This document shows, piece after piece, positions 1,091-59,727 of a DNA stretch of 64,000 nt (position 1 is the first letter of the stretch; each line of letters starts with the position of its first letter). The DNA lies in assembly GCF_003574135.1 (NCBI RefSeq), contig NZ_AP018341.1, forward strand, positions 2,083,740-2,147,739, written 5' to 3'. Under the pieces are notes generated by a model. That model was not told where the DNA came from. It saw nothing but the letters and a program-made list of their open reading frames with translations, and did not search any database. The translations under genes were made by a program, and so were the position numbers. The DNA is from a cyanobacterium endosymbiont of Rhopalodia gibberula. GTDB lineage: Bacteria; Cyanobacteriota; Cyanobacteriia; Cyanobacteriales; Microcystaceae.

Positions 1091-1135
1091 TTAGTTTATA
1101 ACAGTTTTAATAAGAGGCAAACTGTTATAAACTAA
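1091..1135. terminator. Perfect 17-bp hairpin downstream of the osmolyte transporter gene
   Basis: Arms 1091-1107 and 1119-1135 are exact reverse complements with an 11-nt loop. It lies about 90 bases after the stop at 1003. There is no clean T-run on the plus side, but the strand read from the right is T-rich after the stem, so it could act in either direction. Confidence 0.65.
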
Positions 1136-1858
1136 ACTCTCTTAAGAGCCAGCAGACTTTCCCTATCCTAGGTTTGGCAGAATTATAATTAATTTTATGG
1201 CTAAAATAATTAAAATAGTCCATAAAACCTTCACTAAAATTGAGTTAATCTACCATTTTAGTATGGTCTTCTAACCTTATTCTTATCTCCTAAAAACGAT
1301 AATTATTTTTAATCTTGCTCGAAATCAAACTACAAATCTTTTACAACGAACCAAATTACAATTAGCCGTCTAGAGTGAAACTCTGTCCTTGACTGATAAA
1401 CCTATTATCTTTTCCTTCACTAAAAAAAGATTTATATGATTAACTAGGTGTAACTGTTATCAAACTAGCTATAAAATTATCGAAGATTTATTTACCCTCA
1501 GTCCTACGTTGCTACTTGCATAGCTTGTGCTAAACTCTTGAGGAAATAAAAATCTGTCTTTTTAAAAAAATTACAAAAAGCGAAACTTTATAATACTGCT
1601 AGTATAAATTAACTATGAATTGCCTACGAAACTTAAAAAAAAAGTCAAGATTTATGATTTTTAAACCAAAATTGTAGTCCAATAAACTCAAGACAGATTT
1701 GTTTAACATTAATGTAAATCAAAAAAATAAATAACGTAGCAGAATATTATAGTAGAGCTGTCGATATTTTTTTAAAATACTTAAACTCCACAAATATCGT
1801 TTTTAACTTATGTGAATTAATTGAATGACTATTTTTTAAAGTATTTGTTATAGAATAC

Positions 1859-1922
1859 AAAAAAGTACAGTTAATTATCAACTAAATTCTATGCTTAGAA
1901 TAAATAAATACTGTACTTTTTT
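1859..1922. repeat. 12-bp inverted repeat with A-run and T-run flanks
   Basis: Arms 1859-1870 and 1911-1922 match perfectly around a 40-nt loop. One arm begins with an A-run and the other ends in a T-run (with further T after it), the layout of a bidirectional terminator. No intact gene ends nearby. Confidence 0.5.
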
Positions 1923-2335
1923 TAGAAAATTATGATTATTTTAATCAATTTTAATCTTAAAAGTTACTATTTTTGCTCACAAATACATATAATATAAGTT
2001 ATGTATTTATGTCCATGATTTTAGTAATTAAGTATAAATAATAATTAAATATAGAGGATAGTCTTTTTAAAGAAGACATTTTTTGTATCTTCCTAGTTAC
2101 AATTGTATTTTTTGAATTAGTAAAGTATGTTATAAATAACAGTTTTTTAAAATGTGTTATTTTATTGTAAAGTGCTGCAAATAAAGTAATTCTTAACTAT
2201 AAAAGATTAAGATAAGAAAATCAAGATTGCTATCCTTCCGAGACATCTAGTTCCTTTTGGGATAATTATTTCTTGTAAAATTAAGTCCTTGTTTGTAGTT
2301 AATTCTTCTGTTTAATATTGATCACTGATTAGCTT

Positions 2336-3004
2336 ATGTTATTATTACAGTTTAGTACCTCTCATTATTGCCGTAAAGCTAGATTAGCATTAGGTTATAA
2401 AAAAATTTCTTATCAAGTTGAAAACCTAACACCAGGCTTACATTTATTTAAATTAAGACCTCTTACAGGGTTAACAACAGTTCCAGTCTTATTACCTCAA
2501 AAAGTAGAAGAGCCTCAAGTTATTGCTGACTCAACTCGAATTTTTCAATACCTCGAAACCTATCAAAATAATCCTCCATTAATACTACCTGATGCCAATA
2601 AACAAACTCAAGCTTGGTTGTTAGAAGACTGGTTAGATGAGAGCATCGGAACCGCCACTCGTTTTATTTATTATCATTTTCGTGCAGGAAAAGGAAAATC
2701 TATTGATTCTTCCTTGTTTAGTCAAATAGTGATTAATATTGTCCGTCATCAATATAATATTACCCCTGCTACTGTAAGATTAGCCTCAGAACGGTTAAAA
2801 AATGCCATAAATGTGTTATCCTATTGGCAACATCAGCCCTATTTAGTGGGTGATCGCTTAAGTGTTGCTGATTTAACAGCTTCAGCTCTATTGAGTCCTT
2901 TAGGATTAATTCCTGAGTATCGTAAAAATTATCCTTGGTTGTTTAAAAAAATAATCACAATCCATGAAATCTGTGGAGAAAAGCTACCAGCAGGGTTGAA
3001 CTAA
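2336..3004 (+). CDS. Glutathione S-transferase family protein
   Basis: 222 residues, the usual length for a soluble GST. Residues 1-80 give a thioredoxin-like fold: LLQFSTSHYCRKARLALGYK, then TTVPVLLPQ around the cis-proline region, then an ADSTRIFQYLE-like glutathione gamma-glutamyl-binding segment. Residues 90-215 form the all-helical C-terminal domain, including VGDRLSVADLTASALLSPLG, a typical helix-capping/SVADL motif. Probably cytosolic. The substrate cannot be told; a detoxification or redox role is only a family expectation. It is followed after 14 bases by a small secreted-protein gene on the same strand, so the two are probably co-transcribed. Confidence 0.85.
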   Translation: MLLLQFSTSHYCRKARLALGYKKISYQVENLTPGLHLFKLRPLTGLTTVPVLLPQKVEEPQVIADSTRIFQYLETYQNNPPLILPDANKQTQAWLLEDWLDESIGTATRFIYYHFRAGKGKSIDSSLFSQIVINIVRHQYNITPATVRLASERLKNAINVLSYWQHQPYLVGDRLSVADLTASALLSPLGLIPEYRKNYPWLFKKIITIHEICGEKLPAGLN

Positions 3005-3018
3005 CTAAGAAAGTTTCT

Positions 3019-3327
3019 ATGAATCATCATCTGTTAAAATGGTCAATTTTTGTTAACCTAGTTGGGTTGGTAGCTAAATTAAATTCAGCAGTAGCCTTGC
3101 CTCCTCCTGAAGATATACCTGAAGAAATTTTGCGGACAGAAATTGTGACTGAAGGGCGATCACCCATTGATGGAAAACCTTTAACAGCCGGAGAATATGC
3201 TGAGATTAAAGCTAAATTAGCTGAGAGTCCTTACCCTTCCGAACTTAATTCTAAATTGAAACACATTATCTTTTTATTGAAGGTGAGAAAAATGTTAAAA
3301 ACATTTTTTCCGTTGAATCTTTTTTAA
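3019..3327 (+). CDS. Small conserved cyanobacterial protein with signal peptide, function unknown
   Basis: 102 residues. Residues 1-27 form a hydrophobic segment ending in an AVA-type cleavage site, so export to the periplasm or thylakoid lumen is likely. The mature part starts LPPPEDIPEEILRTEIVTEG, continues SPIDGKPLTAGEYAEIKAKL, and ends with a basic-hydrophobic stretch (IIFLLKVRKMLKTF). It resembles small hypothetical proteins of unicellular cyanobacteria, but I cannot name a family. It follows the GST gene by 14 bases. No enzymatic motif is visible. Confidence 0.7.
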   Translation: MNHHLLKWSIFVNLVGLVAKLNSAVALPPPEDIPEEILRTEIVTEGRSPIDGKPLTAGEYAEIKAKLAESPYPSELNSKLKHIIFLLKVRKMLKTFFPLNLF

Positions 3328-57407: not shown

Positions 57408-57640
57408 AATTTGACAAAGTCGCTTCCTGATGGTAGCTAATTTAGCTAATTAAGTCAAGAATTAAAATCCATAATCGTCGATACTCTTTTTTTGCCTCTT
57501 TTGCCAAGTTTAAGCGAATATATAAGAGTTAACCTAGACTTTTTTAGTTATTTAGGGTTAAATTGTAGACAAATTTTAATTAAAAACTATAATCTCTTAT
57601 AGTTTTTGAAAAAACAATCATAAAGATTAACTATATCTTA

Positions 57641-58978
57641 ATGTCTATGCCCTCTCATCTTGAAAAACAGCAACCGGTTTTAGAAATTCAGGGTCAAACT
57701 CCCCTTAAAGGAGAAGTCGTCATTAGTGGAGCTAAAAACTCTGCTCTTGCCCTGATGGCAGGTTCTCTTTTGTGTTCTGAAGACTGTCGCTTAAGGAATC
57801 TTCCCTCTCTAGTTGATGTCAACCGCATGACCCAAGTTTTGGCGTCTTTAGGAGTTAAGCTTCAAAGAAACGGTGACATTTTAGATATCAATGCTCAAAG
57901 TATTGGCAAATCCCAAGCTCCTTATGAATTGGTATCCCAACTGCGGGCAAGTTTCTTTGTTATAGGTCCATTGTTAGCCCGTTTAGGCATGACTCGTGTA
58001 CCATTACCGGGGGGCTGTGCTATTGGAGCTAGACCGGTGGATCTTCACGTCCGAGGATTACAAGCCATGGGCGCTGACGTTCGTATCGAACATGGAGAAG
58101 TCCATGCTTCTGTTAAAGGGAGTCATAATCGCTTAACCGGAGCAAAAATTTATTTGGACTATCCGAGCGTTGGTGCTACAGAAACGATTATGATGGCAGC
58201 AACTCTAGCTGATGGGGAAACTATCATCGAAAATGCAGCCCAAGAACCAGAAATTATCGATTTAGCAAGTTTTTGCTGTTCCATGGGAGCTAAAATTCAA
58301 GGAGCAGGAACTAATAAGATTATTATTTCTGGGGTTGAGTGTTTACATAGTACAGACTACTGTGTTGTCCCTGATCGCATTGAAGCAGGAACCTTTTTGG
58401 TTGCTGGAGCTATTACCCAGTCAGAAATAAGTCTATTTCCTGTAATTCCTGAGCATATAGCTTCAGCTATTGCTAAATTGAGAGCTATCGGACCTCAGGT
58501 CATCATCGAGGAGCCTAATCGCTTACGTTTAATTCCTGCACCGTTACGAGCAACTGACATTGAAACCTTACCCTTTCCTGGGTTTCCTACTGATATGCAA
58601 GCCCAATTTATGGCCTTATTAACCCTAAGTGAAGGCAACAGTGTTGTCACCGAAACTGTATTTGAAAACCGTCTGCGCCACGTGGCAGAGTTCCAACGAA
58701 TGGGAGCAGATATCCGCGTTAAAGGTAACATTGCTTTGGTACGGGGGGTTCCTTTCCTTTCAGGTGCACCAGTCATGGCAACAGATTTACGGGCTTCCGC
58801 TGCCTTAGTATTATTAGGCTTAGCAGCTCAAGGAAAGACGTTAGTACAGGGGTTACATCATTTAGATCGTGGCTATGATAATTTAGAGGGAAAATTACGC
58901 CAATTAGGGGCTAATCTCCGTAGAATTAATCTTGCTTCTGAAGAAGAATTAACCTCATACTCAACAGTAACTAATTAG
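57641..58978 (+). CDS. murA: UDP-N-acetylglucosamine 1-carboxyvinyltransferase
   Basis: 445 residues. It transfers enolpyruvyl from PEP to UDP-GlcNAc, the first committed step of peptidoglycan synthesis, in the cytosol. [20 protein letters not shown] opens the enolpyruvate transferase fold. The catalytic Cys126 lies in [16 protein letters not shown], and [21 protein letters not shown]-like [14 protein letters not shown] and [15 protein letters not shown] follow. It ends [20 protein letters not shown], [19 protein letters not shown]. The ATG at 57641 or the one two codons later can serve. The downstream hairpin at 59007 is its terminator. Confidence 0.96.
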
Positions 58979-59006
58979 TAGTCAAAAGTAGGAATATAAC
59001 TAATGT

Positions 59007-59027
59007 AGGGTGAATAGTTTTCACCCT
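59007..59027 (+). terminator. Rho-independent terminator of murA
   Basis: AGGGTGAA (59007-59014) pairs with TTCACCCT (59020-59027), 5-nt loop, followed by a T-rich run. It begins 29 bases past the stop. Confidence 0.8.
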
Positions 59028-59680
59028 TAATTATTTTGTTTTGTTAAAAGTCATAAATTGGACTTTAAATTAATTTTATTTAAAATAGAAAAAAGTATAC
59101 CAAGAATCCAAACTTAGATGCTGATTTTCCTATCAGCTAGATTTTTAAAAGTCGCTGTAAAAATTAAGTTTATAAAATCACTCAAGAGAACAAAATAATT
59201 TATTTTAAAGTGAAATACGAAATATCAATTTCAACTGAATTTTGGTGTGAAACTTAAAAAGTTTATATTAATTTGTAGTTAATACATCTATTTATAATTA
59301 ATAAGTAGTTAAACTCAATCTAAAGAATAACCTAGCTAAAAAGCAGATAGGTTTACTTTTTGAAGATCGAGTGGCTTGTTTATGATTACTGTGTTGAAGT
59401 CATCTATCATTATCGCTTCACTTTTTTGTTATTTGCTTATATTATCTTGTGTTTAAAAAAGTGATAATTACCCTCTAAAGTTTCAAGATTGGAGTTTTCT
59501 ATTTTGCTGGAGATTATCTAAAACAAAGTAAGTTAGTTAGCTTTTATTGACTGTAGCTATTAATAGCTCTATTGAATTTTACTTAAATACTATAAAACCC
59601 AGAATAGCACCGTACACTTTTTGGACCTGATGCTATTTAACTAACAAAGTCTTTTATCTATTGATAGAGTTTCATGGACT

Positions 59681-59727
59681 ACATTGCATTAACAGCAACA
59701 ATTTTATTGTTGCTGTTAATGCAATGT
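59681..59727. repeat. Perfect 22-bp hairpin with 3-nt loop
   Basis: Arms 59681-59702 and 59706-59727 are exact reverse complements, loop TTT. More G+C in the stem than its surroundings. About 315 bases beyond the 3' end of tRNA-Cys on the minus strand. Confidence 0.75.

What the first reader, a model, noticed from the sequence alone, without database searches (positions are those of the whole stretch)
1091..59727. A genome-scale set of perfect 17-22 bp hairpins preserved in otherwise eroded spacers
At least 13 inverted repeats with arms of 17-22 bp and no mismatch occur, almost all in spacers: 1091, 6671, 11480, 12591, 21523, 24754, 36122, 41378, 47184, 47543, 47835, 48784, 59681. Arms share no common sequence, so they are not copies of a mobile repeat. 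In DNA that has lost every recognisable gene, mismatch-free stems should not persist by drift. They are either selected (bidirectional terminators, RNA stability elements, nucleoid sites), kept perfect by arm-to-arm templated correction, or recently formed. Several lie just past intact genes or relics, suggesting terminators that outlived their genes.
Basis: partly seen in the sequence, partly recalled or inferred. Interest (0 to 1): 0.7.

Follow-up and report, generated by a model that had tools for sequence, protein, structure and literature searches.

The report
Young hairpins from DNA copying slips
The many perfect hairpins in the empty stretches of this diatom-symbiont genome are real, but most look like recent, short-lived scars of DNA copying that briefly used the wrong strand as a template, not preserved control signals.

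Summary
In detail: all 13 listed inverted repeats are present with mismatch-free arms (17-23 bp), plus two with 15-bp arms; dinucleotide shuffles give almost none. The window lies in a 3.02-Mb cyanobacterial endosymbiont close to the Epithemia spheroid bodies EcSB and EtSB, which carry equally many perfect hairpins. The interpretation "preserved" mostly fails. Of 161 hairpins with a usable relative (of 225), 94 have no hairpin-like counterpart there, 27 do, 40 are intermediate. Stems break at close to the background rate with little compensation, so the stock is young and turning over. In new hairpins one arm tends to be retained in the relative while the other has been rewritten as its reverse complement: arm difference 0.177 against 0.098 in matched controls, 0 of 5000 resamplings; the effect is partial. 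This is the signature of inverted template switching, a known mutation type. The minority shared with relatives sit more often near gene 3' ends and are probably terminators. SbcCD, RecJ, RecG and MutS are intact, so their loss does not explain it.

The parts
1090..1136 (.). perfect hairpin, arm 18, loop 11; shared with EcSB, with two paired changes read by eye; 86 nt past a conserved ORF: probably a conserved 3'-end hairpin
   Evidence: EcSB quasi-palindrome score 15 of 16
6671..6735 (.). perfect hairpin, arm 20, loop 25; right arm conserved in EcSB and G004, left arm rewritten as its reverse complement (one-base deletion, longer loop)
   Evidence: not scored, so read by eye only
11480..11521 (.). 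perfect palindrome, arm 21, loop 0; left arm rewritten from right
   Evidence: identity to EcSB/EtSB: L 0.52/0.57, R 0.76/0.76
12591..12630 (.). perfect hairpin, arm 18, loop 4; new (relatives score 10 and 11 of 16), direction unclear
21523..21577 (.). perfect hairpin, arm 22, loop 11; right arm rewritten from left
   Evidence: EcSB/EtSB: L 0.91/0.86, R 0.45/0.45
24754..24795 (.). perfect palindrome, arm 21, loop 0; no usable relative
36122..36159 (.). perfect hairpin, arm 17, loop 4, bounded by A7 and T7; new, a few bases changed, direction weak
41378..41425 (.). perfect hairpin, arm 18, loop 12; left arm rewritten from right
   Evidence: EcSB: L 0.56, R 0.72
47184..47229 (.). perfect hairpin, arm 22, loop 2, very AT-rich; intermediate (EcSB score 12 of 16); two similar places elsewhere in the sampled genome
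47543..47581 (.). perfect hairpin, arm 18, loop 3; no usable relative
47835..47871 (.). perfect hairpin, arm 18, loop 1; borderline shared (EcSB score 13 of 16), both arms diverged
48784..48830 (.). perfect hairpin, arm 23, loop 1; intermediate by score, left arm rewritten from right relative to EtSB; site absent from EcSB
   Evidence: EtSB: L 0.57, R 0.87
   Evidence: EtSB: L 0.87, R 0.67
59681..59727 (.). perfect hairpin, arm 22, loop 3; new, both arms diverged, at a deletion relative to EcSB, EtSB and G004

Best explanation
Most of these hairpins are recent mutations, not preserved elements. During DNA synthesis the growing strand folds back, or jumps to the opposite strand, at a short chance inverted repeat; it copies some 15-30 bases from the wrong template and then resumes. 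In one event this turns a weak quasi-palindrome into a perfect hairpin by rewriting one arm as the reverse complement of the other. In this eroding endosymbiont the spacers are long, AT-rich and largely free of selection, so such events are fixed; the stems then decay by ordinary point mutation and are replaced by new ones elsewhere. A minority, found also in sister endosymbionts and more often near gene 3' ends, are conserved hairpins, probably terminators. Shown: excess over chance, lack of counterparts in relatives for most comparable sites, near-background decay, rewriting that leans to one arm. Inferred: the polymerase step, its being a single event, and the reason why endosymbionts hold more.
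For: Excess over shuffles in the window and a genome sample. Equal abundance in EcSB and EtSB: 68, 81 and 76 with arm >=15 in 464, 500 and 492 kb. 94 of 161 comparable hairpins have no hairpin-like site in any usable relative. Point mutation alone at 7-10% divergence leaves 5-19 of 68-81 (simulation), so they must be replenished. In the new class (60 with both references mapped) lineage-specific change is 0.170 in one arm, 0.060 in the other, 0.069 in flanks (arms labelled after the fact), and newly formed pairs fall on one side in 100 of 121 against 83.8 +- 3.3 expected, 0 of 20000. Gap-free arm test: arm difference 0.177 versus 0.098 in controls matched on the better arm, 0 of 5000; one arm kept and the other lost in 28.0% of 189 new comparisons versus 6.4% of 1783 unmatched controls and 6.3% of 63 shared comparisons. 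Length unchanged within 5 nt in 76% of 94 new sites, so arms are mostly rewritten rather than inserted. A scan not selected on hairpins: reverse complement of the derived tract nearby in 20 discordant clusters, of the ancestral tract in 7, P=0.019. Clear single cases: 6671, 21523 and an EtSB hairpin in block B13.
Against: One-sidedness is partial: 28% of new comparisons show the clean kept/lost pattern and 20.6% have both arms diverged. The second data set agrees in direction only (2.93 versus 2.61, P=0.18; the first set gives 3.06 versus 2.56, P=0.0016). With controls matched on substitution number the three-genome test weakens to 0.776 versus 0.711, P=0.004, n=31; over all classes there is no difference at exactly three changes (0.756 versus 0.763). 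Single-mismatch correction, the textbook quasipalindrome effect, is not elevated. Pooled over all classes, stems show no more lineage-specific change relative to the references than flanks do (0.703 versus 0.715), and reference stems are slightly more complementary than independent change predicts (2250 versus about 2132 of 3596). Arm ends are as abrupt in shared as in new hairpins, so that is not diagnostic. 64 of 225 hairpins had no usable relative. Alignment of AT-rich diverged spacers is noisy.
Confidence: 0.72

Rival explanations
1. The hairpins are selected bidirectional or orphan terminators, or RNA stability elements, kept perfect by compensatory change.
For: 27 of 161 are shared with all usable relatives, 32% of those placed lying within 60 nt of a gene 3' end; some covary by eye, e.g. 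block B14 own 1027 and B17 own 19782 and window 1090. All hairpins pooled show a mild 3'-end excess: 38.8% within 200 nt versus 26.1% of random spots. Compensated pairs in the longest stems: 7 of 609, versus 0.4% in unsupported pairs; breakage slightly lower in strong stems (13.1 versus 15.5%).
Against: 94 of 161 lack a counterpart and only 1% of the placed ones lie within 60 nt of a 3' end. No T-run excess beyond stems and no convergent bias. Double-changed pairs complementary at about chance, 95 of 283.
Confidence: 0.18
2. Old hairpins are kept perfect by continuous arm-to-arm correction of point mutations.
For: Correction of quasipalindromes is documented in E. coli (PMC7202029, abstract and passages) and repeat conversion is proposed for Nematomorpha mitochondria (PMC6649704, passages).
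Against: Mismatches in strong quasi-palindromes become paired at 5.7-9.6%, as in weaker ones (7.1%), with non-pairing changes about twice as frequent (likewise); perfect stems break near the background rate.
Confidence: 0.08
3. They are mobile palindromic repeats (MITE- or REP-like) scattered by transposition.
For: One 20-bp-arm hairpin is repeated (L130:18942 and L210:1319, each with six further full-length matches in the sample).
Against: 7 of 117 own-genome hairpins have another full-length match in 864 kb, and new sites show no insertion (median length change 0).
Confidence: 0.02

Closest known systems
[quoted passage not shown] coli (Klaric et al. 2020, PMC7202029, abstract and passages seen)
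   Same: An imperfect inverted repeat becomes perfect in one event, with one arm as template.
   Different: Seen here as fixed changes across a natural genome; relatives' sites are weak repeats (11 or fewer of 16 pairs in the new class); no rise of single-mismatch correction was detected; no strand assignment.
Template-switch mutations creating RNA hairpins (Monttinen and Loytynoja 2022, PMC8794818, abstract and Discussion read)
   Same: De novo perfect stems by one reverse-complement copying event, inferred by comparing relatives.
   Different: That work treats RNA genes; here mostly in-place rewriting in bacterial spacers.
Quasipalindrome correction (van Noort et al. 2003, seen only as a citation in PMC6649704 and PMC10434271)
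   Different: Here resolved site by site with orthologous spacers.
Perfect coding palindromes of Nematomorpha mitochondria (PMC6649704, abstract start and passages seen)
   Same: Perfect inverted repeats with multiple gains and losses.
   Different: Much longer (up to 284 bp) and inside genes; here short and in spacers.
Intrinsic (Rho-independent) terminators
   Same: Stem-loop; the shared minority sits more often near gene 3' ends.
   Different: The majority lacks T-runs, gene-end position and conservation.

Membership tests
Template-switch (quasipalindrome) mutations | Derived sequence is the reverse complement of a nearby template | tested here: met
   By construction for hairpins; independently in 734 unselected clusters, 20 derived-only versus 7 ancestral-only, P=0.019
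Template-switch (quasipalindrome) mutations | Changes lie on one arm, the other arm is ancestral | tested here: met
   Met statistically: 0.177 versus 0.098, 0 of 5000; 100 of 121 new pairs on the majority side. Partial in individual cases; second set P=0.18
Template-switch (quasipalindrome) mutations | Mismatches in existing quasi-palindromes are corrected above background | tested here: not met
   correction as in weak or chance stems; few data for the strongest stems. For this reason the hairpins are described as working like template-switch products, with this sub-feature missing
Template-switch (quasipalindrome) mutations | Formed during replication, with leading or lagging strand bias | not testable with these tools
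   GC skew too weak in the sampled stretches to place origin and terminus
Intrinsic terminators | Position just downstream of a gene 3' end | tested here: not met
   New class 1% within 60 nt; shared class 32%
Intrinsic terminators | T-run after the stem | tested here: not met
   8.2% versus 9.8% control; also 7% in shared, 9% in new
Intrinsic terminators | Conserved stem with compensatory change | tested here: not met
   Not met for the majority; met by eye in some hairpins
MITE/REP repeats | Many similar copies and insertion footprints | tested here: not met
   7 of 117 with another match; no length gain

The most novel reading that the evidence does not exclude
Rhopalodiacean spheroid bodies run an elevated rate of short inverted template switching, so that perfect hairpins are continuously minted and lost; their eroding spacers would be a natural mutation-accumulation record of this event class in bacteria, and the raised rate would be a so far unrecognised consequence of endosymbiotic genome decay (for example altered fork stalling, or nuclease loss such as ExoVII).
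Probability: 0.3. Interest if true: 0.6.

Novelty: new member of a known kind. Interest (0 to 1): 0.42.

Why it matters
Perfect hairpins in non-coding DNA are easily read as functional elements. Here relatives show that most comparable ones are young, fit a known replication error and decay nearly neutrally, so hairpin perfection alone is no evidence of function in eroding genomes. The syntenic spheroid-body genomes give a site-resolved set for measuring how often a bacterial lineage fixes such events and how long the hairpins last.

Tried and rejected
Loss of hairpin-processing or related genes: SbcD, SbcC, RecJ (two copies), RecG and MutS matches over cut-off, without stops, are present in G000, EcSB, EtSB and G004 and in the other genomes searched (29 of 29 for SbcD, 13 of 13 for the rest). 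XseA is not found in the four endosymbionts but neither in G005 (87% complete), G006, G008 and G019; found in 5 of 13, so its absence is not specific.

Single-mismatch correction was expected to be elevated and was not. A first gapped arm-asymmetry test gave a weak effect (0.137 versus 0.102 over 235 comparisons), because shared and new hairpins were mixed; splitting by the state in relatives and gap-free matching clarified it. A pair-level test over all classes (arm >=14; 98 of 263 comparable) gave 111 of 134 new pairs on the majority side against 95.5 +- 3.4. Replication-strand polarity was dropped because GC skew is flat. Rfam at gathering threshold found only the two tRNAs.

Literature: one search returned no paper; among the listed titles and abstract starts I saw none that reports this for spheroid bodies. 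Searches listed 12 of 464 and 12 of 8,913 papers, so this is not exhaustive. Word searches inside PMC11070190 found none of six terms such as repair, repeat or intergenic; PMC5638926 was seen in passages on pseudogenes only.
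Full report
WHAT THE WINDOW IS. The window is G000:C1:2083740-2147739 of a single 3,020,309-base contig. By identity of the one protein tested its nearest held genomes are G001, G003 and G004 (96, 95 and 92%). I infer a nitrogen-fixing spheroid-body type endosymbiont of a rhopalodiacean diatom, or a very close relative; the genome itself is unnamed. The window is broadly collinear with all three, so orthologous spacers can be compared.

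OBSERVATION. 13 of 13 listed inverted repeats are present and perfect; two more have 15-bp arms. With loops up to 60 nt, 13 have arms of at least 16 bp against 0.03 per dinucleotide shuffle, and 12 have at least 18 bp against none in 30 shuffles. Outside the window, 26 stretches of 20 kb of the same genome hold 60 with arms >=15 against 0.4 per shuffle. In 21 syntenic blocks own, EcSB and EtSB hold 68, 81 and 76 (464, 500, 492 kb). Per 10 kb outside long ORFs the densities are 2.81 (own, 584 kb), 3.42, 2.95 and, for 80 kb of G004, 3.98, against 0.62 (2 cases) and 0 in G006 and G002, two relatives that I take to be free-living from their size (about 32 and 31 kb outside long ORFs). Of the 80 loci, the three endosymbiont loci (65 kb) hold 10 and the other 77 hold 41 in 1.40 Mb. 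Spacers of G006 and G002 are short and less AT-rich, so this contrast does not by itself show a higher mutation rate.

WHERE THEY ARE. Of 225 hairpins (arm >=15) in the 21 blocks of three genomes, 178 lie between conserved ORFs, 33 at block edges, 8 overlap one and 6 lie inside one, although 48-53% of the DNA is such ORFs. Spacer orientation shares (convergent 0.30, divergent 0.32, tandem 0.38) do not favour convergent genes (base share 0.33, 0.25, 0.43). T-runs beyond the stem are no commoner than at random spots (8.2 versus 9.8%). There is a mild 3'-end excess (38.8 versus 26.1% within 200 nt). As a group they are not ordinary terminators.

PRESERVED OR NEW. For each hairpin I asked how hairpin-like the orthologous site in relatives is (best of 16 pairs). 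161 of 225 had at least one usable relative, 82 both. In 27 all usable relatives scored >=13 (shared), in 94 all scored <=11 (new), 40 were intermediate; control sites score <=11 in 92-93%. Of those with a placed gene neighbour, 32% of shared and 1% of new hairpins lie within 60 nt of a gene 3' end. Some hairpins covary in the alignments printed (random 24 of 41 eligible; output cut), and window 1090 shows two paired changes against EcSB (by eye). Perfect stems are hardly protected: pairs in the longest stems break at 14.3% against 14.0% for unsupported pairs, or 13.1% against 15.5% by window score; double-changed pairs are complementary in 95 of 283, about the one in three expected by chance (the expectation is my reckoning). 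Against this, compensated pairs in the longest stems are 7 of 609 versus 0.4%, and reference stems are slightly more complementary than independent change predicts (2250 versus about 2132 of 3596); the shared minority can account for both. Random point mutation at 7-10% would leave 5-19 of the 68-81 present hairpins, while lineage-specific change at comparable non-coding sites is about 9%. The stock must therefore be renewed.

HOW THEY FORM. The window alignments show the pattern by eye. At 6671 the right arm is nearly unchanged in EcSB and G004 while the left arm has been replaced by its reverse complement. At 21523 the left arm is conserved and the right arm rewritten. 11480, 41378 and 48784 have the left arm rewritten. 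In new hairpins with both references mapped (60), lineage-specific change is 0.170 in the more changed arm (labelled after the fact), 0.060 in the other and 0.069 in flanks, and 100 of 121 newly formed pairs fall on the majority side (null 83.8 +- 3.3); the intermediate class gives 24 of 27 (P=0.013) and the shared class 7 of 9 (P=0.48). Gap-free matching of each arm to the relative gives an arm difference of 0.177 against 0.098 in controls matched on the better arm (0 of 5000). One arm kept with the other lost is seen in 28.0% of 189 new comparisons, 6.4% of 1783 controls (not matched for divergence) and 6.3% of 63 shared comparisons; 57 of 222 distinct hairpins show it in at least one comparison. 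Site length is unchanged within 5 nt in 76% of 94 new hairpins, so arms are mostly overwritten, not inserted. A scan that ignores hairpins, of 734 clusters of lineage-specific substitutions, found the reverse complement of the derived tract nearby in 21 and of the ancestral tract in 8 (discordant 20:7, P=0.019).

RESULTS THAT LIMIT THE CLAIM. The effect is partial: 20.6% of new comparisons have both arms diverged. Matching on substitution number lowers the three-genome test to 0.776 versus 0.711 (P=0.004, n=31), and over all classes hairpins with exactly three changes do not differ from control. The second data set (own and EcSB only, 400 kb) points the same way without significance (P=0.18; first set P=0.0016). 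Pooled over all classes, stems do not show raised lineage-specific change relative to the references. Isolated mismatches in quasi-palindromes are not corrected above background, so the process is not frequent repair of near-perfect stems but, as I read it, rare events that rewrite an arm of a weak starting repeat. Abrupt arm ends are found in shared and new hairpins alike. Of the 15 window hairpins, 8 classify as new, 2 as shared (one borderline), 2 as intermediate and 3 could not be scored.

WHY HERE. SbcC, SbcD, RecJ, RecG and MutS are intact; the ExoVII large subunit XseA is not found in the four endosymbionts but neither in four of the other nine genomes searched. The most economical reading is relaxed selection on long AT-rich spacers; a raised rate is possible and untested.

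KNOWN CONTEXT. Template switching that makes quasipalindromes perfect is established in E. coli (PMC7202029, abstract and passages) and has been proposed as the source of RNA hairpins (PMC8794818, abstract and Discussion). A survey of bacterial inverted repeats counts 28 endosymbionts among its 200 genomes of highest frequency (PMC10434271, passages), and a 2026 survey of perfect inverted repeats was seen in passages (PMC13155455). The finding is therefore a natural, site-resolved instance of a known mutation type rather than a new element.

Noticed in passing
L130:18942 and L210:1319 (same genome, outside the window): A 20-bp-arm palindrome occurs in identical copies (each with six further full-length matches in the 864-kb sample): perhaps a small mobile palindromic repeat, unlike the other hairpins.
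   Followed up: no
G000 about 1.67-2.87 Mb versus EcSB about 2.96-1.77 Mb: Probe order shows one very large inverted segment relative to EcSB, and for all but one probe also relative to EtSB.
   Followed up: no
whole genome: ExoVII large subunit (XseA) is not detected in the four endosymbiont genomes nor in G005, G006, G008 and G019 (8 of 13 genomes without a match).
   Followed up: partly
window 15322-18039 and 37810-39063: Two ORFs that look like tRNA nucleotidyltransferase / poly(A) polymerase family proteins, one with DHH- and CBS-like parts (recognised from the translations, no family search run).
   Followed up: no
window 46363-49029: Hairpin density in the window (15 in 64 kb) is about twice that of the other sampled stretches (60 in 520 kb); four of the 15 fall within this one 2.7-kb spacer.
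   Followed up: no
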